From an uncultured Thermomonas sp. (GTDB lineage: Bacteria > Pseudomonadota > Gammaproteobacteria > Xanthomonadales > Xanthomonadaceae), in contig CAMLJA010000045.1 in NCBI GenBank assembly GCA_946480065.1, positions 1 to 10,518 on the forward strand: DNA of 10,518 nt, given 5' to 3'. The translations under genes were made by a program, and so were the position numbers. Positions 1 through 8,538 of the stretch are shown piece by piece. The notes under the pieces are model-generated. The model saw nothing but the letters and a program-made list of their open reading frames with translations, was not told the origin of the DNA and made no database searches. Within the stretch, counting starts at the first letter, position 1, and the number at the start of each line of letters is the position of its first letter.

Positions 1-1608
1 CTGCCGGCGCCGCTGCTGCGCTGGCGCGAGGGCACCACCGTCACCCTGCGGGTGGCCAACGCGCTGCCGCCCGGGTCCACGCACGGCGACCGCACCTCCA
101 TCCACTGGCACGGCATCCTGCTGCCGGCCAACATGGACGGCGTGCCGGGCCTGAGCTTCGACGGCATCCGCCGCGGCGAGGCCTACCGCTACCGGTTCGA
201 GGTGCGGCAGGCGGGCACGTACTGGTACCACAGCCACTCGATGTTCCAGGAGCAGGCCGGCCTGTACGGCCCGCTCATCATCGACCCGCTGGAACCCGAA
301 CCCTTCGCCTACGACCGCGACTACGTGGTGATGCTCTCCGACTGGACCGACCTGGATCCGGCCAGGCTCTACGCGCGGCTGAAGAAGAGGCCGGGCTACG
401 ACAACCTCCACCGGCGCACGGTGGGCGATTTCCTGCGCGACGTGCGCGAGGACGGGCTTACCGACACCCTCGCGGACCGCGGCATGTGGGGACGGATGCG
501 GATGACGCCCACCGACCTGTCGGACGTCAACGGCCACACCTACACCTACCTCTTGAACGGCACCACCTCGCTGGGCAACTGGACCGGCCTGTTCCGGTCC
601 GGCGAGAAGATCCGGCTGCGCTTCATCAACGGCTCGGCGATGACCCACTTCGACGTCCGCATCCCGGGCCTGAAGATGACCGTGGTCGCTGCCGACGGCC
701 AGTACGTGCACCCCGTGACGGTGGACGAATTCCGCATCGCCACCGCCGAGACCTTCGACGTGATCGTCGAACCGACCGGGCAGGATGCCTTCACCGTGTT
801 CGCGCAGGACATGGGCCGCACCGGCTTCGTCGCCGGCACCCTGGCGGTCCGCGAGGGCCTGCGCGCGCCGATCCCGCCGGTCGACCCGCGGCCGATCCTG
901 ACCATGGCCGACATGGGCCACGGCGGCACGGGCCACGGCATGCCCACGATGGCCGGGATGCAGGCCATGAAGGGCATGGAGGGCGGTTGCGGTGCCAGCA
1001 TGGGCATGGCCATGCCCGCCGCCGCCGCGCAGGCCCACGCCGGCCATGTCGCGCCGATGCCGGGCAGGGACCACCCCGGCGGCATGCAGGCGCACCCGCC
1101 CAGCGAGGCCGGCAACCCACTGGTCGACATGCAGGCGATGGCACCGGTGCCGAAGCTGGACGACCCGGGCATCGGCCTGCGCGGCAACGGCCGCAAGGTG
1201 CTCAGCTACGCCATGTTGCGCAGCGCGTTCGAGGACCCGGACGGGCGCGAGCCCGGGCGCGAGATCGAGCTGCACCTCACCGGGCACATGGAGCGGTTCG
1301 CCTGGGGCTTCGACGGCCGCCCGTTCGCGGACGCCGAGCCGCTCCGGCTGACCTACGGCGAGCGCCTGCGCATCGTCCTGGTCAACGACACCATGATGAC
1401 CCACCCGATCCACCTGCACGGGATGTGGAGCGACCTGGAGGACGAAGCGGGCCGCTTCCAGGTCCGCAAGCATACCGTCGACATGCCGCCGGGCAGCCGC
1501 CGCAGCTACCGCGTGCGCGCCGACGCGCTGGGCAGCTGGGCCTACCACTGCCACCTCCTGTACCACATGGAGGCTGGGATGATGCGGACCGTGAGGGTGG
1601 ACGAATGA
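1..1608 (+). CDS. copA: Copper-resistance multicopper oxidase CopA/PcoA type, 5' end outside window
   Basis: Periplasmic multicopper oxidase of the copper-resistance family, thought to oxidise or sequester Cu(I). The frame is open from base 1, so the native start and signal peptide (usually a Tat signal) lie upstream; 535 residues are visible against about 600 in the family. All four copper-ligand motifs are present: HWHG at 103-114, WYHSH at 223-237, HPIHLHG at 1402-1422, and a C-terminal HCH at 1546-1554 followed by His (1564) and the axial Met (1579) of the type 1 site. Between the second and third cupredoxin domains (about 904-1140) is a Met/His/Gly-rich stretch with MxxM and GHxM spacings typical of extra Cu(I) binding. 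The stop TGA overlaps the copB ATG by four bases, so the two are probably co-translated. This gene is distinct from the copper ATPase that is also often called CopA. Family assignment is very secure; the symbol is conventional. Confidence 0.96.
   Translation: MPAPLLRWREGTTVTLRVANALPPGSTHGDRTSIHWHGILLPANMDGVPGLSFDGIRRGEAYRYRFEVRQAGTYWYHSHSMFQEQAGLYGPLIIDPLEPEPFAYDRDYVVMLSDWTDLDPARLYARLKKRPGYDNLHRRTVGDFLRDVREDGLTDTLADRGMWGRMRMTPTDLSDVNGHTYTYLLNGTTSLGNWTGLFRSGEKIRLRFINGSAMTHFDVRIPGLKMTVVAADGQYVHPVTVDEFRIATAETFDVIVEPTGQDAFTVFAQDMGRTGFVAGTLAVREGLRAPIPPVDPRPILTMADMGHGGTGHGMPTMAGMQAMKGMEGGCGASMGMAMPAAAAQAHAGHVAPMPGRDHPGGMQAHPPSEAGNPLVDMQAMAPVPKLDDPGIGLRGNGRKVLSYAMLRSAFEDPDGREPGREIELHLTGHMERFAWGFDGRPFADAEPLRLTYGERLRIVLVNDTMMTHPIHLHGMWSDLEDEAGRFQVRKHTVDMPPGSRRSYRVRADALGSWAYHCHLLYHMEAGMMRTVRVDE
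1062..1069 (+). other. KOPS-type octamer pointing right
   Basis: Exact GGGCAGGG (consensus GGGNAGGG), inside copA, oriented towards the dif-like site at 6154-6181. It could be chance in GC-rich DNA. Confidence 0.35.
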
Positions 1609-2657
1609 ACGCATTGCACCGGACCACCCGCACCCTGCTGGCGCTGGCCCTGCTGCTGCCCGCCGTTGGCCAGGCCCAGCACGCCGGGCATGCGGCCACG
1701 CCGGTCCCGCCCGAGACGGCGGCGGAGGCGAAGCCCCGGGAGCACGTCACGACGGATCACTCGGCGATGGACCACTCGACGATGGACCACTCGACGATGG
1801 ACCACTCGGCGATGGACCACTCGGCGATGGACCACTCGACGATGGACCACTCGACGATGGACCACTCGACGATGGACCACTCGACGATGGATCAATCGAC
1901 GATGGAGGATCACCGGGCGATGGACCACCCGGCGATGCCACGGGCGCCGCGCGAACCGATCCCGATTCTCACCGACGCCGACCGCGCCGCGGCGTTCCCG
2001 TTGCCGGATCCGCATCTCCGGCACGCTTCCGGCACGCACAGCTTCTGGTTGCTCGACCGGTTGGAAATGACCGATGCCGGCGGGGGCGGGGGACTGGCCT
2101 GGGAAGGATCGGCCTGGGTCGGAGGCGATATTCGCAGGCTCTGGCTGCGCAGCGAGGGCGAAGCCCGCAACGGAGGCGTGGAATCCGGCAGCCTGGAGGT
2201 GCTCTACGGGCGGGCCGTCACGCCCTGGTGGGACGTCGTGGCGGGCCTGCGCCACGATATCGGCGAGGGGCCCTCGCGCAACTGGGCGGCACTCGGCGTG
2301 CAGGGCATGGCGCCCTACAAGTTCGAAGTCGCAGCGACCGCCTACCTGGGCCCGGCGGGCCGCACCGCCGCGCGACTGGAGGCGGAGTACGAAACCCTGC
2401 TCACCAACCGCCTGGTCCTGCAGTGGGGGGCGGAGGCCAACCTGCACGGTCGGGCCGACCCCGCGCTGGGCGTGGGCGCGGGCCTGTCGACGGTGGAAGC
2501 CGGGGCCCGGCTGCGCTACGAGGTCACCCGCCGGGTCGCCCCGTACCTGGGCATCGAGCGCGAGCGCGCCTTCGGTGCCACCGCGGGTCTTCGCACAAGC
2601 GCGGGCGAGCCCCGCGCCGACACGCGCCTGGTGGCCGGCGTGCGCCTTTGGTTCTGA
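1605..2657 (+). CDS. copB: Copper-resistance outer-membrane protein CopB with His/Met repeat
   Basis: 350-residue CopB-family (PcoB-like) outer-membrane protein that accompanies CopA. Residues 1-24 look like a signal peptide (LALALLLP core, cleavage after GQA). A low-complexity region follows: about ten tandem copies of a DHS[T/A]M pentapeptide at residues 51-100, then two degenerate copies (DHRAM, DHPAM). These suit Cu(I) binding by Met and His. From about residue 145 to the end the protein has alternating aromatic/hydrophobic strands of a CopB-type beta-barrel and finishes with a terminal Phe, the usual outer-membrane assembly signal. The start is the ATG that overlaps the copA stop; AGGG at 1594-1597 is seven bases upstream. 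An open frame continues far upstream inside copA, but that part is an out-of-frame shadow. Repeat copy number is likely to vary between strains. Confidence 0.94.
   Translation: MNALHRTTRTLLALALLLPAVGQAQHAGHAATPVPPETAAEAKPREHVTTDHSAMDHSTMDHSTMDHSAMDHSAMDHSTMDHSTMDHSTMDHSTMDQSTMEDHRAMDHPAMPRAPREPIPILTDADRAAAFPLPDPHLRHASGTHSFWLLDRLEMTDAGGGGGLAWEGSAWVGGDIRRLWLRSEGEARNGGVESGSLEVLYGRAVTPWWDVVAGLRHDIGEGPSRNWAALGVQGMAPYKFEVAATAYLGPAGRTAARLEAEYETLLTNRLVLQWGAEANLHGRADPALGVGAGLSTVEAGARLRYEVTRRVAPYLGIERERAFGATAGLRTSAGEPRADTRLVAGVRLWF
1755..1904 (+). repeat. 15-bp in-frame tandem repeat in copB (about 10 copies)
   Basis: Ten consecutive 15-bp units of the type GAYCACTCGRCGATG, each coding for Asp-His-Ser-Thr/Ala-Met. 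Copies differ mainly at one base (ACG or GCG for Thr/Ala), and the last copy has CAA for CAC. Two decayed copies follow to 1937, the first with an extra Glu codon. The unit is a multiple of three, so gain or loss of copies by slippage would keep copB in frame and change the number of metal-binding residues. Near identity at DNA level points to recent expansion or homogenisation. Confidence 0.95.
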
Positions 2658-2670
2658 CAGGAGAAACGAC

Positions 2671-3255
2671 ATGCACATCCCTACCGACCGCGTGCTGTGC
2701 GCCACGATGCGCTTGGCGTTGCCCCTGCTGCTGGCGGCCTGCACGCAGGGTCCCGCTGCTGCCGAAGCCGGCACCATTGCACCGGCACTGACACCCCGCG
2801 AAGCCCCCTCTCCACCGCGGGGCGCAGCGCCCGCCACCGCCCCTCCGGGCAGGCGCGCGGCACTGCCGTTGGCCGTGGTCCACAAGAGCCCGACCTGCGG
2901 TTGCTGCGGCGCGTGGATCGACCACCTGCGGAAGCACGGCTTCCGGGTCGAGGTGCGCGAGGAGGTAGACCTTGGCCCCACCAAGGCGCGCCTGGGCGTC
3001 CCGGCCGGCAAGGCCTCCTGCCACACCGCCGAGATCGGCGGCTACCTGGTGGAAGGGCATGTGCCGGCCGCCGACATCGAGCGCCTGCTGCGCGAGCGAC
3101 CCAAGGCGCGCGGCCTGGTGCTGCCCGGGATGCCGGTGGGGTCGCCGGGCATGGAGGTGGAGGGCGTCGCCGCGCAGCCATACACGGTGGAGCTGGTCAC
3201 GGAGGCCGGCGACACGCTGCCGTATGCCCATCACCCGGTTGGGGAGGCCCCTTGA
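2671..3255 (+). CDS. copG: DUF411 / CopG-type copper-binding protein, probable lipoprotein
   Basis: 194-residue DUF411 protein, the family that includes CopG of heavy-metal islands, which binds a copper cluster through cysteines. The N-terminus has a hydrophobic run ending in LLAAC (Cys24), a plausible lipobox, followed by an Ala/Pro-rich linker to about residue 65. The conserved domain then carries CGCC at residues 76-79, SCHTA with Cys117-His118, GHVP, and a GLVLPGMPVGSPGME block. AGGAG at 2659-2663 sits seven bases before the chosen ATG. An internal ATG at codon 13 has no ribosome site. The gene starts 13 bases after copB, so it belongs to the copA-copB transcript. It likely acts in the periplasm, attached to a membrane, handling Cu(I) with CopA and CopB. 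The TGA stop is part of the -35 hexamer of the following MerR-type promoter. The family is certain; the symbol is by analogy. Confidence 0.9.
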   Translation: MHIPTDRVLCATMRLALPLLLAACTQGPAAAEAGTIAPALTPREAPSPPRGAAPATAPPGRRAALPLAVVHKSPTCGCCGAWIDHLRKHGFRVEVREEVDLGPTKARLGVPAGKASCHTAEIGGYLVEGHVPAADIERLLRERPKARGLVLPGMPVGSPGMEVEGVAAQPYTVELVTEAGDTLPYAHHPVGEAP

Positions 3256-3283
3256 CTCTGGACTAGAGTCCAGGTTGCACACT
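3252..3283 (+). promoter_or_regulatory. MerR-type promoter/operator with 20-bp spacer
   Basis: A -35 hexamer TTGACT (3252-3257) and a candidate -10 CACACT (3278-3283) are 20 bp apart, the stretched spacing that MerR-family activators correct. The spacer holds a dyad: CTGGACT (3258-3264) and AGTCCAG (3267-3273) are exact inverted repeats around two bases. The outer bases extend it to an imperfect 22-bp operator like the heavy-metal MerR consensus (ACTCTGGA-type halves). It lies 31 bp before the regulator gene and would control regulator and ATPase together. The -10 is weak on sight. Confidence 0.8.
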
Positions 3284-3313: not shown

Positions 3314-3712
3314 ATGAAGATCGGCGAACTCGCGCAGCGCTCCGGTGTCGGCATCGACACGGTGCGCTTCTACGAACGGGAGGGACTCTTGCCCAAGGCG
3401 CAGCGGCTGGCGTCGGGGTATCGCGTGTACGCGCCCGACGACCTCAAGCGGTTGCGATTCGTCCGGCGTGCCAAGGCGCTGGGCTTCACGCTGCCGGAAA
3501 TCCGCGATCTGCTGGCCCTGTCGGGCCAGCGCGCGGGCGACATGGCTGCCTTGCGTTCGCTGGCCGCCGACAAGCTCGCAGGCGTGGACGCCAGGATCGC
3601 CGAGCTGCAGCGGGTACGCGCGGGCCTGCAAGCGCTGGTGGCGGCGTGCCCGGGCCACGGCGCCCTGGCGCACTGCCCGATCCTCGATGCCCTGTCCGGA
3701 GACGACGCATGA
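3314..3712 (+). CDS. MerR-family heavy-metal regulator, CueR-like
   Basis: 132-residue MerR-family activator. The N-terminal winged helix-turn-helix (residues 1-40, with [11 protein letters not shown] and GYRVY) binds DNA, residues about 75-110 form the dimerisation helix, and a C-terminal loop has two cysteines, Cys112 and Cys121, followed by PILDAL. This matches the two-Cys metal loop of CueR, although the spacing is Cys-x8-Cys rather than x7. Ungapped alignment with E. coli CueR places Met77 at the Ser77 position that distinguishes Cu+/Ag+ sensors from the Cys of divalent-metal sensors. The ATG at 3314 follows AGGTGG (3303-3308), and the longer open frame upstream is a shadow. The promoter in front of it suggests autoregulation. 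The stop overlaps the ATPase ATG, so the target exporter is directly downstream. Copper or silver sensing is inferred from context and residues; mercury sensing is unlikely because the third Cys is missing. Confidence 0.92.
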
Positions 3713-6159
3713 ACATCCACTCCCAATCCGCAGGCAACGGCAACGCAAACGCCGGCACAGGCCAGCGGCACGACCACGCGCCAGGGGCGCACGCGGCGGG
3801 GCAGGCCCACGCCTGCTGCGGTGCCAGCGGTGGCCAGGACTCCGCCGCGGCAGCACCCGCGACGACCGACCCGGTCTGCGGCATGCAGGTCGATCCCGCG
3901 ACCACGCCGCACCACGCCACGCACGCCGGCCGCGACTACCATTTCTGCTCGGCGCGCTGCCGCGACAGGTTCGTCGCCGACCCGGACAACTACCTCGCGC
4001 CAGGCGACGCGGGCCCGGCCGAGCCGGCGCCGGCAGGCACCGTGTACACGTGCCCGATGCATCCAGAGGTGCGCCAGGTCGGACCCGGGACCTGCCCATT
4101 CTGCGGCATGGCGCTGGAACCGGAGATGCCGGCGCTGGACGACGGCGAGAACCCGGAACTGGTGGATTTCAGCCACCGCTTCTGGTGGACGCTGCCGCTG
4201 ACCGTGGCGGTGCTGGCGCTGGCGATGTTCGGCCACCGCCTCGGCGCGTGGCTGTCCACGGGCGTGCGCACCTGGACGGAGCTCGCGCTCAGCGCCCCGG
4301 TGGTGCTGTGGGCCGGCTGGCCGTTTTTCCAGCGCTGGGTGCAGTCGGTCCGCAACCGCAGCCCGAACATGTGGACCCTCATCGGCACCGGCGTGGCCGC
4401 GGCGTTCGGCTACAGCGTGGTCGCCACGCTGGCGCCCGATCTCTTCCCGGCGTCGTTCCGGGAACACGGCCGCGTGGGCGTCTATTTCGAGGCGGCGGCG
4501 GTCATCGTCTCGCTGACCCTGCTCGGCCAGCTCCTGGAACTGCGCGCCCGTTTCAAGACCTCGGCCGCGATCAAGGCCCTGCTTGGGCTGGCGCCGAAGA
4601 CCGCCCGCCGGCTGCGCGACGACGGGGGCGAGGAGGACATCGAACTGTCGCACGTGCACGTCGGTGACCGCCTGCGCGTGCGTCCCGGCGAAAAAGTACC
4701 GGTGGACGGGGTGGTCCTTGAGGGTCGGTCCAACCTCGACGAGTCCATGCTCACCGGCGAGCCGGTGCCGGTGGAGAAGGGCGTGGGTGACAGCGTGATC
4801 GGCGCCACCCTCAACGGCACCGGCAGCCTCGTGATCCGCGCCGAGAATGTGGGCGCGGAGACCGTGCTGGCGCAGATCGTGCAGATGGTGGCGCAGGCGC
4901 AGCGCTCGCGCGCGCCGATGCAGCGGATGGCCGACCGGGTGGCGTTCTGGTTCGTGCTGGGGGTGCTGGCGGCGGCGGTGGCCACCTTCCTCGCCTGGGG
5001 CCTGCTCGGCCCGGAACCCGCTTGGACGTATGCGGTGCTCAACGCGGTGTCGGTGCTGATCATCGCCTGTCCCTGCGCGCTCGGGCTGGCCACGCCGATG
5101 TCAATCATGGTCGCCACCGGGCGCGCCGCGCAGGCCGGCGTGCTGTTCCGCGACGCCGAGGCGATCGAGCATTTCCGCCGCATCGACACCTTGGTGGTCG
5201 ACAAGACCGGCACCCTGACCGAAGGCAAGCCGGCGTTCCGCGAGGTCGTGGCGCACGGCGGGTTCGGCGAGGACGAGGTGTTGCGCCTGGCCGCCAGCCT
5301 GGACCAGGGCAGCGAACACCCGTTGGCGGACGCCATCGTGGCCGAGGCCCGCCGCCGCGGGCTGGCGCTGGAGTCCGCGGAAGGATTCGAATCCGCCACG
5401 GGCACCGGCGTGCGCGGCACGGTCGGCGGGCGCCGGCTGGCGATCGGCAACACGGCGCTGATGCGCGAGGAAGGCGTGGACACCGCGCCGCTGCAGGCGA
5501 GGACCGAGGCGCTGCGGGGGCAGGGGGCCAGCGTGATGCACCTGGCGGTGGATGGCACCCTCGCGGGGTTGCTGGCGGTGGCCGACCCGATCAAACCGTC
5601 GACGCCCGAGGCGATCAAGGCCCTGCAGGCAGCCGGGTTGCGGATCGTGATGGCCAGCGGCGACGCCTCCGCCACCGCGAAGGCGGTAGCCGGGGCGCTG
5701 GGCATCGACGAGGTGCACGGCGAGGTGCGGCCGCAGGACAAGGTGGCCTTGGTGGAGCGCCTCAAGGCCGAGGGCCGCAAGGTGGCGATGGCCGGCGATG
5801 GCATCAACGACGCCCCGGCGCTGGCCGCGGCCGACATCGGCGTGGCGATGGGCACCGGTACCGACGTGGCCATGTCCAGCGCGCAGGTGACCCTGGTCAA
5901 GGGCGACCTGCGCGCGCTCCTGCGCGCCCGGGCGCTGTCCGAGGCCACCGTGGCCAACATGAAGCAGAACCTAGGCTTCGCCTTCGTCTACAACGCGCTG
6001 GGCGTGCCGATCGCCGCCGGCGTGCTGTATCCGTTCACCGGGCTGCTGCTCAGCCCCATGATCGCGGCCCTGGCAATGAGCCTGAGCTCGGTCTCGGTGG
6101 TGGCCAACGCGCTGCGGCTGGGGCGCCGCCGAATCGCCGGAGACGCCCCAGCCTTATAA
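3709..6159 (+). CDS. Cu+/Ag+-exporting P1B-type ATPase with YHS and HMBD N-terminal domains
   Basis: 816-residue inner-membrane pump that drives monovalent copper or silver out of the cytosol (CopA/SilP/CopF group). In order: a His-rich lead (residues 20-40), a YHS domain (DPVCGM at 54-59, Cys80 and Cys84), and a heavy-metal-binding domain with CPMHP (Cys115, His118) and CPFCGM (129-134). Then come four membrane helices (about 157-280), the actuator TGE at 349-351, helix 6 CPC at 454-456, the phosphorylation motif DKTGT with Asp498, the nucleotide-domain HP at 537-538, and GDGIND at 696-701. Two final helices carry YN (761-762) and MxxSS (790-794), the signature of Cu+ pumps. No classic HMA domain with CxxC is present. 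The start is the ATG overlapping the merR stop, six bases after GGAGA (3698-3702). The last Leu codon and the TAA stop lie inside a dif-like Xer site. Confidence 0.96.
5518..5525 (+). other. KOPS-type octamer pointing right
   Basis: Exact GGGCAGGG inside the ATPase gene, about 630 bases from the dif-like site and oriented towards it. It could be chance. Confidence 0.35.
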
Positions 6160-6181
6160 CATAATAGACATTATGCGAAGT
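6154..6181 (-). other. dif-like XerC/XerD recombination site
   Basis: On the + strand: TTATAACATAA (6154-6164, XerD-type arm), TAGACA (6165-6170, centre) and TTATGCGAAGT (6171-6181, XerC-type arm). Read on the minus strand it matches the 28-bp E. coli dif at 22 positions, including CGCATAATGT and TATTATGTTA; the differences are one base in the centre and five near the ends. The inner arms form the inverted repeat CATAAT/ATTATG. It also differs by one base from the 15-bp core I recall for Xanthomonas dif and its filamentous phages (TATACATTATGCGAA). It is a short AT-rich island in otherwise very GC-rich DNA. It overlaps the ATPase stop and lies between two convergent genes. It is either the chromosomal dif or an attachment-type copy at the end of an integrated element. 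Confidence 0.85.
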
Positions 6182-6206: not shown

Positions 6207-6620
6207 TCACTGGGCCTGATTCAGTTCGCAGGCCCGTAGCCCTGCCTCCAGTCGCCTGAGCAGCGGGATGTCGCGGTTGTGGCGGGCATCTTGCTGGGTC
6301 CGCTCGTATCGGGCGCGCAGGCTTCGGCACCGACGCGTCACCGGGTCGGTGCGCGGCCTGCGGCTGCCCAGCCGAATGCCGGCCCGCGGTGGCGGAAACG
6401 CCACGGCATCGGCCAGCGCCGGACGCGCGGTGGCCGGGTTCGCCCTGATCGGCGGCGCGACCGGTTCGCGCCAGACGCGCTCGGGGGTACCCGCGCACGG
6501 ATGGGACTGGTATGCCGCATGGCCGGCGGCGTCGCGGCATTTGTAGAACGTCATCGCCTGGCCGCGTGCCGGGCCGGCGGCGAGCAACACGATGGCCAGG
6601 AAACCTCCGACTCCACGCAT
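6207..6620 (-). CDS. Secreted DUF4124-type protein of unknown function
   Basis: 137-residue small protein with a signal peptide (hydrophobic FLAIVLLAA, cleavage near residues 20-22). A short motif follows, YKCRDAAGHAAYQSHPC, which is the DUF4124 pattern (Tyr-x-Cys-x-Asp-x-x-Gly ... Tyr ... Pro-Cys) with Cys28 and Cys42. The C-terminal half is Arg-rich, probably helical, and carries Cys98 and Cys131, so two disulphides are possible. The start is the ATG at 6620, where the signal peptide begins, with GGGAG five bases upstream; the open frame before it is not coding-like. The gene converges on the copper ATPase with only the dif-like site between them, and is divergent from crcB. The function of this family is not known. 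It is probably periplasmic. Confidence 0.82.
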   Translation of the reverse strand: MRGVGGFLAIVLLAAGPARGQAMTFYKCRDAAGHAAYQSHPCAGTPERVWREPVAPPIRANPATARPALADAVAFPPPRAGIRLGSRRPRTDPVTRRCRSLRARYERTQQDARHNRDIPLLRRLEAGLRACELNQAQ

Positions 6621-6745
6621 GGCATCTCCCGTTGGCGATCCGCAGGCGCCGCACGGGCGCGTACACTCGGGCGGCGGTCGCGCCCGGCGCAGGCCGTGAC
6701 GGCGACAACAGCATGCGACTCGGAGGCGGCGTGGCCTATCCGGCA
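6621..6745. other. Divergent intergenic region between the DUF4124 gene and crcB
   Basis: 125 bases that must hold the promoters of both divergent genes. TACACT at 6662-6667 could be a -10, but I see no convincing -35. GGAGG at 6722-6726 is the best ribosome site for crcB. Nothing resembling a fluoride riboswitch was seen. Confidence 0.4.
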
Positions 6746-7135
6746 ATGGTGGTGAACGGGGTCGGGATTTCCCTCGGCGCGGCGCTGGGCGCCCTGCTGC
6801 GCTGGCAGCTGGGTCTGTGGCTGAACCCGGTACTGCCGGCGCTGCCGATGGGTACGCTGGCCGCGAACCTGGCGGGCGGCCTGCTGGTCGGGCTGGTGGT
6901 CGAATCCACCGCGCTCGATCCCGCCTTCCCGCCGGTCCTGCGGCTGGCGGTGGTCACCGGCTTCCTGGGCGGCCTGACCACGTTCTCCACGTTCTCGGCG
7001 GAGAACGTCGACCTGCTGCTGCGGCGGGAATACGGCTGGTCGCTGGCGCACATCGGCGCCCACCTGCTGGGGTCGCTGGGGCTGACCGCGCTGGGCATCC
7101 TGATCGTCCGCCTGTTCGCCGCGCGGCCCGCCTAA
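6746..7135 (+). CDS. crcB: Fluoride ion channel CrcB (Fluc)
   Basis: 129-residue CrcB/Fluc protein, a small dual-topology membrane protein whose dimers let fluoride leave the cytosol. Four hydrophobic helices are visible. Family signatures are GAALGALLRW near the N-terminus, GTLAANLAGG with the conserved Asn in helix 2, and GGLTTFSTFSAE in helix 3, the phenylalanine/threonine pore segment. The start is uncertain: ATG 6746 gives the family's usual ten residues before the first Gly motif. GTG 6731 is five codons earlier and only four bases from GGAGG (6722-6726). ATG 6713 is also in frame but has no ribosome site. The gene is the only + strand gene right of the dif-like site and converges on rarA with 32 bases between them, where I see no clear terminator. 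Confidence 0.92.
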   Translation: MVVNGVGISLGAALGALLRWQLGLWLNPVLPALPMGTLAANLAGGLLVGLVVESTALDPAFPPVLRLAVVTGFLGGLTTFSTFSAENVDLLLRREYGWSLAHIGAHLLGSLGLTALGILIVRLFAARPA

Positions 7136-7167: not shown

Positions 7168-8538
7168 TCAGCCCTGGGCGTCGCCCTGCCCCGCCCGCGC
7201 TTGGCGGCGCGCTTCGCGCAGGGCGTCCAGCTTCTCCTTCAGCCGGCCCTCCATGCCGCGCGCCGTGGGCGCGTAATAGACCTTCTCGCCCAGCGCGTCC
7301 GGGAAGCCGGTCTGGCCCAGCGCCACGCCGCCGTCCACGTCGTGGTCGTACTGGTATTCGCGCCCGTAACCGAGCGACTTCATCAGGCCGGTCGGCGCGT
7401 TGCGGATGTGCAGCGGCACCTCGAGGCTGCCGTGCGCGTCCACGTCGGCCCGCGCCGCCTTCCAGGCCACGTAGCCGGCGTTCGACTTGGCGGTGCTGGC
7501 CAGGTACAGGGTGAGCTGCGCCAGCGCCAGGTCGCCCTCCGGCGAACCCAGGCGGTCGTGCGCCTGCCAGGCCTCGATCGCCATCTGCAGCGCGCGCGGA
7601 TCGGCCAGCCCGATGTCCTCTACCGCCATTCGCGTGAGCCGGCGCGCCAGGTAGGACGGATCCGCGCCGCCGTCCAGCATCCGCGCCAGCCAGTAGAGCG
7701 CGGCGTCGGGGTTGGAGCTGCGCACGCACTTGTGCAGCGCCGAGATCTGGTCGTAGAAGCCGTCCCCGCCCTTGTCGAACCGGCGGGTGCGGTCGGCCAG
7801 CACCTGGTGCAGGGTGTGCTCGCCCACCAGCCCGCCCTCGCCCGCCGCGATGTCGGCCGCGATTTCCAGCAGCGTCAGGGCGCGCCGCACGTCGCCATCG
7901 GCGGCCGCGGCGATGTCGCGCAGCGCCGCCGGCGAGACCTGGAGGCCGCGCCCGCCCAGCCCGCGTTCCGCGTCGTCCAGCGCACGCGCCAGCGCGCGTT
8001 CGATGTCCGCGGCAGAGACCGCTTCCAGCACGTGCACGCGGCAGCGCGACAGCAGCGCGGAATTGAGCTCGAACGACGGATTCTCGGTGGTGGCGCCGAC
8101 GAACAGGATGCTGCCGCGCTCGATGTGCGGCAGGAACGCGTCCTGCTGGGTCTTGTTGAAGCGGTGCACCTCGTCGACGAAGAGCACGGTGCGGCGGCCG
8201 GCCTCGAAGCGCGCCTGCGCCTGCGCCAGCACCTCGCGCACCTGCGGCAGGCCGGACAGGACCGCGGAGATCGCCACGAACTCGGCGTCGGCATAGCGCG
8301 CCAGCAGCAGGGCCAGCGTGGTCTTGCCGCAGCCGGGCGGCCCCCACAGCACCATGGAATGCACGTGGCCGCGCTCGATGGCGCGGCGCAAGGCGGAGTC
8401 GGGAGAGAGGAGGCGACGCTGGCCGACGATCTCGTCCAGCGACTGCGGCCGCATGCGCTCCGCCAGCGGACGCAAGGCCGCGGATTCGGCGCTGCCTGCG
8501 AGCAAGTCGGGGGTCGGGGTGCTGCGGGGCCTGGCCAC
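7168..8538 (-). CDS. rarA: Replication-associated recombination protein RarA (MgsA), AAA+ ATPase
   Basis: 456-residue AAA+ ATPase of the RarA/MgsA/WRNIP1 family, related to clamp-loader ATPases and acting at stalled replication forks. Visible motifs: PLAERMRPQSLDEIVGQ near the N-terminus, Walker A GPPGCGKT (residues 66-73), Walker B LFVDEVH (119-125), sensor 1 ATTENP (149-154), an SRC arginine-finger segment (164-166), and sensor 2 around GDVRRAL. The C-terminal MgsA tetramerisation domain contains DPSYLARRLTRMAVEDIGLADP and the SNAGYVAW and YGREYQYDHD blocks. The start is GTG at 8538: an in-frame TAG lies just upstream, and the next Met (codon 29) would cut into the conserved N-terminal motif. 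The ribosome site is weak. It is 23 bases downstream of the preceding minus-strand gene, so probably in an operon with it and lolA. Confidence 0.96.
   Translation of the reverse strand: MARPRSTPTPDLLAGSAESAALRPLAERMRPQSLDEIVGQRRLLSPDSALRRAIERGHVHSMVLWGPPGCGKTTLALLLARYADAEFVAISAVLSGLPQVREVLAQAQARFEAGRRTVLFVDEVHRFNKTQQDAFLPHIERGSILFVGATTENPSFELNSALLSRCRVHVLEAVSAADIERALARALDDAERGLGGRGLQVSPAALRDIAAAADGDVRRALTLLEIAADIAAGEGGLVGEHTLHQVLADRTRRFDKGGDGFYDQISALHKCVRSSNPDAALYWLARMLDGGADPSYLARRLTRMAVEDIGLADPRALQMAIEAWQAHDRLGSPEGDLALAQLTLYLASTAKSNAGYVAWKAARADVDAHGSLEVPLHIRNAPTGLMKSLGYGREYQYDHDVDGGVALGQTGFPDALGEKVYYAPTARGMEGRLKEKLDALREARRQARAGQGDAQG
7184..7191 (-). other. KOPS-type octamer pointing left
   Basis: CCCTGCCC on the + strand, so GGGCAGGG on the minus strand, within the 3' end of rarA. 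It lies on the far side of the dif-like site and is also oriented towards it. Confidence 0.35.

What the first reader, a model, noticed from the sequence alone, without database searches (positions are those of the whole stretch)
6154..6181. A dif-like XerCD site at the edge of a copper-resistance block
The 28-bp stretch matches E. coli dif at 22 of 28 positions on the minus strand, with both 11-bp arms and a 6-bp centre recognisable. The copper genes end at it and housekeeping genes begin after it. Elements that use the host XerCD enzymes instead of their own integrase leave exactly such a boundary. A copper-resistance block at dif with no visible integrase would be a cargo worth describing. 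Alternatively this is simply the chromosomal dif with copper genes beside it.
Basis: partly seen in the sequence, partly recalled or inferred. Interest (0 to 1): 0.85.

Follow-up and report, generated by a model that had tools for sequence, protein, structure and literature searches.

The report
Chromosomal dif beside a copper-gene slot
The 28-letter site is very probably the bacterium's normal chromosome-untangling site (dif), and in this bacterial family the ground beside it is a place where different copper-resistance gene clusters often turn up, with no sign so far that the dif enzymes put the one in this window there.

Summary
The dif-like site at 6154-6181 (minus) is real and is, by all evidence from relatives, the chromosomal dif of a Lysobacteraceae bacterium. 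196 of 247 family genomes carry one such site (51 gave no match), as do 25 of 25 in the nearest genus. FtsK-orienting octamers switch polarity at it (746 of 767 point to dif in 94 regions; 3 of 3 in the window). A copper element inserted by XerCD is not supported: no half-dif flanks the copper block in the window or any of 35 relatives with copper within 10 kb of dif; the window block's far end is out of view. The address is unusual. CopB lies within 10 kb of dif in 22 of 104 carriers (0.8 expected), against 0 of 20 for ChrA and 0 of 26 for HsdM. Several copper lineages occupy the gap between dif and F6-ppsR-ppsA (11 of 24 genomes not picked for copper). CopF and RarA trees disagree, pointing to horizontal transfer. 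In passing: a recombinase/coiled-coil pair beside dif, with anti-phage genes nearby in 9 of 16 genomes.

The parts
6154..6181 (-). chromosomal dif: XerC arm 6171-6181, centre TGTCTA 6165-6170, XerD arm 6154-6164
1..1608 (+). copA, copper-resistance multicopper oxidase (5' end outside the window)
   Evidence: Cu-oxidase domains and TIGR01480 on residues from position 52
1605..2657 (+). copB, copper resistance protein B with a DHS[TA]M repeat
   Evidence: PF05275; repeat read
2671..3255 (+). DUF411 protein, copper-cluster partner
   Evidence: PF04214
3314..3712 (+). MerR-family metal regulator
   Evidence: PF13411/PF09278; no NCBIfam equivalog cut-off reached
3709..6159 (+). copF, copper P1B-type ATPase with YHS and HMBD domains; last codon and stop lie inside dif
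6207..6620 (-). DUF4124-like small protein, immediate XerC-side neighbour of dif
   Evidence: PF13511 just under cut-off; a family of similar look beside dif in G099, G223, G255, G257
6731..7135 (+). crcB
   Evidence: PF02537
7168..8538 (-). rarA (mgsA); reads toward dif, as in all 18 regions (window included) with it within 10 kb
   Evidence: PF12002
9353..9970 (-). lolA
   Evidence: PF03548
10081..10518 (-). ftsK, 3' end only
1062..1069 (+). KOPS-like octamer GGGCAGGG in copA, pointing to dif
5518..5525 (+). KOPS-like octamer GGGCAGGG in copF, pointing to dif
7184..7191 (-). KOPS-like octamer GGGCAGGG in rarA, pointing to dif

Best explanation
The site is the host's chromosomal dif, where XerC/XerD, brought and activated by FtsK running along KOPS, resolve chromosome dimers. 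The block copA-copB-DUF411-merR-copF on its XerD side is a horizontally acquired copper-resistance cluster in a recurrent cargo slot of Lysobacteraceae: the gap between dif and a conserved gene set (F6, ppsR, ppsA). The copper genes act as usual: oxidase and outer-membrane binding by CopA/CopB, Cu(I) export by the P-type ATPase, regulation by the MerR protein (established for these families, not tested). Shown in relatives: dif identity, enrichment of copper clusters at dif, several lineages in one slot, discordant trees. Inferred: that the window's block fills the same slot; that clusters arrive by ordinary recombination or transposition into a tolerant terminus gap, not by XerCD; and that only cargo whose KOPS point to dif persists, because wrong-way KOPS would misdirect FtsK.
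For: One dif per relative: 196 of 247 family genomes, reversed-pattern control 0, and 25 of 25 genus genomes. The published Xanthomonas campestris dif (PMC2731167, passage), turned to this strand, is ATTTCGCATAATGTATATTATGTCAGGA: same XerC core and ATTATGT. KOPS-like octamers: 746 of 767 point to the site in 94 regions, against 71-81% for four rearranged octamers; 45 of 45 inside copper-gene matches within 10 kb of dif; window 3 of 3. GC skew is higher on the XerC side in 75 of 82 regions. CopB within 10 kb of dif in 22 of 104 CopB genomes, expected 0.79; within 100 kb in 56, expected 7.8. Copper between dif and F6/ppsR/ppsA in 16 of 30 genomes; 11 of 24 without six fetched for copper or comparison (second count by hand). 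Two copper layouts, plus copA-copB without a regulator in view (G255), on the XerD side in the nearest genus, and a third layout in the window. Window CopF is nearest G077 (80%; RarA 76%), while RarA is nearest G001 (86%; CopF 74%). A 16.4 kb copper island 98.25% identical in G101 and G023 ends 2.5 kb from dif in G101; in G023 it lies on another contig than dif.
Against: The window's own genome is not held, so its second copper edge, skew and replichores were not seen; in the window itself KOPS are no more frequent than in shuffles (3 against 2.9). Part of the enrichment is inherited: one CopA clade (13 of 30 sequences, all reading away from dif) may be an old resident of the spot, so genomes are not independent and the Poisson values are too strong. 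8 of 94 regions have copper on the XerC side, and in 5 of 30 genomes the F6/ppsR set is on the XerC side. 31 genomes have CopB only on another contig, where the distance is unknown. The KOPS filter is inference: KOPS polarity is chromosome-wide.
Confidence: 0.78

Rival explanations
1. The copper block is (or was) an IMEX: a circular element with a dif mimic that XerCD inserted at dif, regenerating a full dif at one end and leaving a half-site at the other.
For: The ATPase frame ends inside dif, with its stop codon supplied by the XerD arm, while the sister gene in G077 stops a few codons after the shared motif. Insertions with half-sites do occur at this dif in relatives: 12 exact XerC-arm-plus-centre copies on the XerC side and 4 centre-plus-XerD-arm copies (13-15 of 15) on the XerD side, all direct; G244 has inverted ones besides.
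Against: No half-site in the window. Of 35 relatives with copper within 10 kb of dif, 5 have a half-site (G008, G202, G145, G136 on the XerC side with copper on the XerD side; G057 the other way round), and in none does copper lie between dif and a half-site. Old half-sites could have decayed, and flanks held were only about 10 kb in many.
Confidence: 0.12
2. Plain ancestral synteny: copAB has sat beside dif since the family's ancestor, and inversions around the terminus shuffled it; nothing is acquired at dif.
For: One CopA clade of 13 sequences from several lineages always reads away from dif, 12 of 13 on the XerD side. rarA also stays near dif and reads toward it in 18 of 18 regions. Copper is widespread: CopB in 104 of 120 genomes.
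Against: CopF and RarA distances correlate weakly (r = 0.23, 252 pairs). The window's CopA falls in another clade than the dif-side clade of the nearest genus. Two species share a copper island at 98.25%.
Confidence: 0.25
3. General terminus accumulation of accessory genes, nothing specific to copper or dif. (The rivals are not exclusive; odds do not sum to 1.)
For: RND-efflux-like and mer-like genes (named by eye) also occur there; terminus regions are known to gather accessory genes (recalled).
Against: In the same 40 genomes ChrA is within 10 kb of dif in 0 of 20 carriers and within 100 kb in 2; HsdM within 100 kb in 0 of 26; CopB within 10 kb in 7 and within 100 kb in 23 of 38 (counted by hand; matches on other contigs count as not near). 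CopB density falls steeply with distance from dif. Only two control families were tried.
Confidence: 0.3

Closest known systems
Chromosomal dif / XerCD-FtsK dimer resolution (E. coli, Xanthomonas campestris; PMC2731167 and PMC3025954, passages seen)
   Same: 28-bp site, two 11-bp arms, 6-bp centre, single copy, KOPS polarity switch
   Different: Outer bases of the XerD arm vary widely among the 92 relatives' sites tabulated (sites were found by pattern, which favours the core); copper genes abut it
IMEX such as the gonococcal genetic island, VGJphi, EludIMEX-1 (PMC5357621 and PMC9765430, passages seen)
   Same: Cargo sits directly at dif with no own integrase in view
   Different: No dif mimic or half-site seen at the copper clusters; several layouts in the same place
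Chromosomal copper islands of Xanthomonas, e.g. the ~85 kb copLABGF plus mer island near the replication terminus of X. euvesicatoria pv. perforans A2-1 and C1-1 (PMC12864420, section 18 and passages seen)
   Same: Copper cluster near the terminus in the same family
   Different: The main text has no 'dif site' and no 'XerC'; that island is flanked by prophages and matches a megaplasmid region
Filamentous phages integrating at dif in Xanthomonas (Cf, phiLf: PMC2731167 passage; XacF1: search listing)
   Same: Use the host's dif; zot matches lie within 10 kb of dif in 4 of 40 genomes, 6 genes in all
   Different: No copper cluster was seen between dif and a half-site; prophage gene content was not examined further

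Membership tests
chromosomal dif | 28-bp site with XerC arm, 6-bp centre and XerD arm | tested here: met
chromosomal dif | single copy per chromosome | tested here: inconclusive
   met in relatives: at most one per genome among 247, one in each of 25; with another pattern G002 shows a full site plus a partial copy 5.3 kb away. The window's genome is not held
chromosomal dif | lies at the switch of KOPS polarity and GC skew | tested here: met
   relatives. Window: 3 of 3 octamers and a small skew sign change, few data
chromosomal dif | bound and recombined by XerC and XerD | not testable with these tools
   needs purified proteins
IMEX (integrative mobile element exploiting Xer) | second dif-like or half-dif site at the other end, same centre | tested here: inconclusive
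   none in the window or enclosing copper in 35 relatives, but the far end of the window's block is not in hand
IMEX (integrative mobile element exploiting Xer) | empty dif with otherwise same flanks in a near relative | tested here: inconclusive
   G246 has rarA on the XerC side and F6 1.9 kb away on the XerD side without copper, but genes between rarA and dif differ; G001 has dif reversed relative to rarA
IMEX (integrative mobile element exploiting Xer) | excised circular form | not testable with these tools
   needs PCR or reads

The most novel reading that the evidence does not exclude
In Lysobacteraceae dif is a polarised cargo harbour. Different copper clusters are repeatedly taken up into one gap, mostly on the XerD side, while a second slot, mostly on the XerC side, holds a tyrosine recombinase plus coiled-coil pair with its own inverted-repeat core that carries interchangeable anti-phage systems. 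FtsK/KOPS polarity acts as the gatekeeper that decides which way round cargo may stay. That would make chromosome segregation a selector of gene acquisition.
Probability: 0.3. Interest if true: 0.78.

Novelty: new variant of a known kind. Interest (0 to 1): 0.55.

Why it matters
If copper clusters really collect beside dif, the chromosome-dimer site is more than a phage docking point: it marks a niche where adaptive genes are gained and swapped. It gives a simple place to look for metal-resistance (and, on the other side, anti-phage) variation in Xanthomonas relatives, and it makes testable the idea that FtsK polarity filters the orientation of new DNA near the terminus.

Tried and rejected
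Second dif or half-dif in the window: none at 13 of 15 or better. The site as a known phage attachment site: no phage record matches the 96 bp around it at E 0.1, a weak test because a 28-bp match alone would hardly pass. The copper block as plasmid cargo: of 119 plasmid records with a match none covers 80% of it; the 15 listed match copF alone, the best at about 77-78% in Xanthomonas plasmids. Mobile ends of the 16.4 kb G101/G023 island: no transposase or integrase recognised by eye (no family search was run on it). The early impression that most relatives lack dif near rarA held only for the 10 kb flanks and was put right by whole-genome searches: rarA is often tens of kb away.

Results that do not fit: G244 has three XerC-type half-sites on the XerD side and one XerD-type half-site on the XerC side, all inverted, with two zot genes within 10 kb of dif. 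G123 has a weak half-site (13 of 15). Two of the 12 CopA sequences in the window's clade read away from dif. 21 of 767 KOPS-like octamers point away. The XerD-side against XerC-side preference (16 to 5 genomes among 71 with both flanks held, p = 0.027) ignores kinship. Trees were FastTree runs, midpoint-rooted, support values not shown. The 94 dif regions include nine fetched because copper was near (G007, G008, G202, G250, G066, G093, G057, G147, G136) and G023 for comparison; and the 11-of-24 count leave these out, searches do not.

Full report
What is there. The 28-mer at 6154-6181 (minus strand) reads ACTTCGCATAATGTCTATTATGTTATAA; it matches E. coli dif (letters recalled) at 22 of 28 positions and is the only dif-like site in the window, with a match in 0 of 200 shuffles. 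On its XerD side lie copA, copB, a DUF411 gene, merR and a copper P-type ATPase gene; on its XerC side a DUF4124-like gene, crcB, rarA, an unnamed gene, lolA and the end of ftsK. The ATPase stop codon is inside the XerD arm.

It is the chromosomal dif. The window's genome is not held, so I used relatives. RarA is 87% identical to that of a Lysobacterales MAG, UWPOB_THERMO2, here G001. A dif pattern with up to 3 mismatches finds one site in 196 of 247 genomes of that family, never two, and the reversed pattern finds none; 51 genomes gave no match. In the MAG's genus, 25 of 25 genomes have one. That the window belongs to this genus is inferred. In 11 of 20 nearly complete single contigs the site lies at 0.48-0.58 of the contig; in the other 9 it lies elsewhere, and where these contigs start is unknown (counted by hand). 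The X. campestris dif in the literature has the same XerC core and ATTATGT (PMC2731167, passage). KOPS-like octamers GGGNAGGG (motif recalled from E. coli) flip polarity at the site: 746 of 767 in 94 regions point to it, while four rearranged octamers do so in 71-81%. In the window all three such octamers point to it, though three are no more than shuffles give. GC skew is higher on the XerC side in 75 of 82 regions.

Was the copper block put there by XerCD? Elements that use XerCD leave a half-site. Such copies exist beside dif in relatives: 12 exact XerC-arm-plus-centre copies, all on the XerC side and direct, at 1.2-9.2 kb, and 4 centre-plus-XerD-arm copies (13-15 of 15) on the XerD side at 5.3-6.9 kb. 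G244 is an exception with four inverted copies. Zot, a filamentous-phage family, is found in 4 of 40 genomes, 6 genes, all within 10 kb of dif, so many of the 5-9 kb cases are probably filamentous prophages (inference; not examined gene by gene). No half-site occurs in the window. Of 35 relatives with copper within 10 kb of dif, 5 have a half-site somewhere and none has copper between dif and a half-site; the flanks held range from about 10 to 49 kb, less where a contig ends.

Copper clusters and dif. CopB (PF05275) was searched in two batches, 40 and 80 genomes; all 120 had a located dif. 104 have CopB. It is within 10 kb of dif in 22, 50 kb in 44 and 100 kb in 56, against 0.8, 3.9 and 7.8 expected for uniform placement; in 31 genomes CopB is only on another contig. 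Controls in the same first 40 genomes: ChrA, 20 carriers, none within 10 kb and two within 100 kb; HsdM, 26 carriers, none within 100 kb; CopB, 38 carriers, 7 within 10 kb and 23 within 100 kb (these counts by hand). Of regions fetched without regard to copper, 17 of 58 family genomes and 9 of 25 genus genomes have CopA, CopB or CopF within 10 kb of dif; full 9 kb flanks were held for 55 and 16 of them. In the genus all nine are on the XerD side; in the family set 12 have copper on the XerD side, 6 on the XerC side, 1 of them on both.

A slot. Where dif and the conserved genes F6, ppsR or ppsA are in view within 20 kb (30 genomes; 25 on the XerD side, 5 on the XerC side), copper genes lie between them in 16; leaving out six genomes fetched because of copper or as comparison (G057, G008, G136, G093, G202, G023), it is 11 of 24 (second count by hand). 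In the genus set two layouts occur, merR-copF divergent from copA-copB, and merR-copA-copB (G257), plus copA-copB alone in view in G255; the window has a third, copF-merR-DUF411-copB-copA going out from dif. The window ends before F6/ppsR, so its place in the slot is inferred.

Horizontal transfer. CopF and RarA distances correlate weakly (r = 0.23, 252 pairs). The window's CopF is closest to G077 (80%, RarA 76%), whereas RarA is closest to G001 (86%, CopF 74%). G101 and G023 share a 16.4 kb copper island at 98.25%. On the other hand a CopA clade of 13 of 30 sequences always reads away from dif, so part of the association is probably old and inherited.

KOPS and cargo. Inside copper-gene matches within 10 kb of dif, 45 of 45 KOPS-like octamers point to dif: 37 on the sense strand of genes reading toward dif and 8 on the antisense strand of genes reading away. 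This fits selection against wrong-way KOPS, but KOPS polarity is chromosome-wide, so it does not prove a filter at dif.

Beside the point asked, but beside dif: a divergent integrase and coiled-coil pair lies within 13 kb of dif in 19 of 94 regions (a twentieth, G263, is cut by a contig end), the integrase always reading away from dif, with PADLOC anti-phage families beyond the integrase in 9 of 16 genomes examined and 0 of 10 control proteins across dif. The window shows no such pair.

Literature. Searches with dif, XerC/XerCD, copper resistance, genomic island, replication terminus and heavy metal terms showed me no paper naming copper clusters at dif; for most only titles and abstract starts were seen, the term 'dif' without a whole-word match is too loose to be useful, and only open-licence papers are held. 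The nearest is PMC12864420 (section 18 and passages): an ~85 kb copper and mercury island near the replication terminus of two X. euvesicatoria pv. perforans strains.

Verdict. Ordinary site, uncommon address. The dif claim is close to certain. The copper slot is well supported as a pattern in relatives. How clusters enter it is not shown.

Noticed in passing
G-handle dif regions, e.g. L290, L301, L289, L286, L133; plasmid loci L307-L310: A divergent pair, tyrosine integrase (~360 aa, PF00589) and coiled-coil protein (~307 aa; 'KfrA-like' is recalled, no family search run), lies 1-13 kb from dif in 19 of 94 regions, 15 on the XerC side, 4 on the XerD side, integrase reading away from dif in all 19 (a cut twentieth in G263). 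An inverted repeat CGATAA-N7-TTATCG lies between the two genes in all 9 copies compared, 5 beside dif and 4 on plasmids. A search of 60 whole genomes, which included these 19, found no other copy at E<=1e-60. It also occurs on Xanthomonas and Rhodanobacter plasmids. Resembles the TnpS/TnpT pair of Tn4651 (recalled).
   Followed up: partly
L289, L301, L292, L296, L140, L286, L128, L133, L238, beyond the integrase: PADLOC anti-phage families beyond that integrase in 9 of 16 genomes (20 proteins tested, 10 clear matches): Pycsar, CBASS (5 genomes), IetS, PDC-S39, Qat; a tenth genome (G123) is weak. Across dif, 0 of 10 control proteins matched (10 of 12 listed candidates used; one protein per genome, so not fully matched).
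   Followed up: partly
L001, L029, L138, L155, L258/L259, L303: Very short stretches (1.2-1.6 kb) lie between an exact XerC-type half-site and dif in six genomes; they may be remnants of filamentous prophages or tiny satellites.
   Followed up: no
L001 and L288 against the window; L286, L287, L291, L293: Relative to rarA and crcB, dif is reversed in the nearest relative G001 and in G148, and a DUF4124-like neighbour sits on the XerD side in G099, G223, G255 and G257 but on the XerC side in the window: local inversions at dif seem common.
   Followed up: no
L228/L229 (G126, around dif): A fragment of the CopF C-terminus (83% over 64 residues) lies about 0.45 kb beyond dif, with a full copF ending just on the other side, hinting at a duplication across dif.
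   Followed up: no
window about 1750-1900: copB carries nine tandem DHS[TA]M units and a variant tenth, a likely metal-binding repeat (read).
   Followed up: no
window 3252-3281: Inverted repeat CTGGACT-AG-AGTCCAG just after a TTGACT box, upstream of merR, looks like a MerR-type operator (by eye; motif recalled).
   Followed up: no
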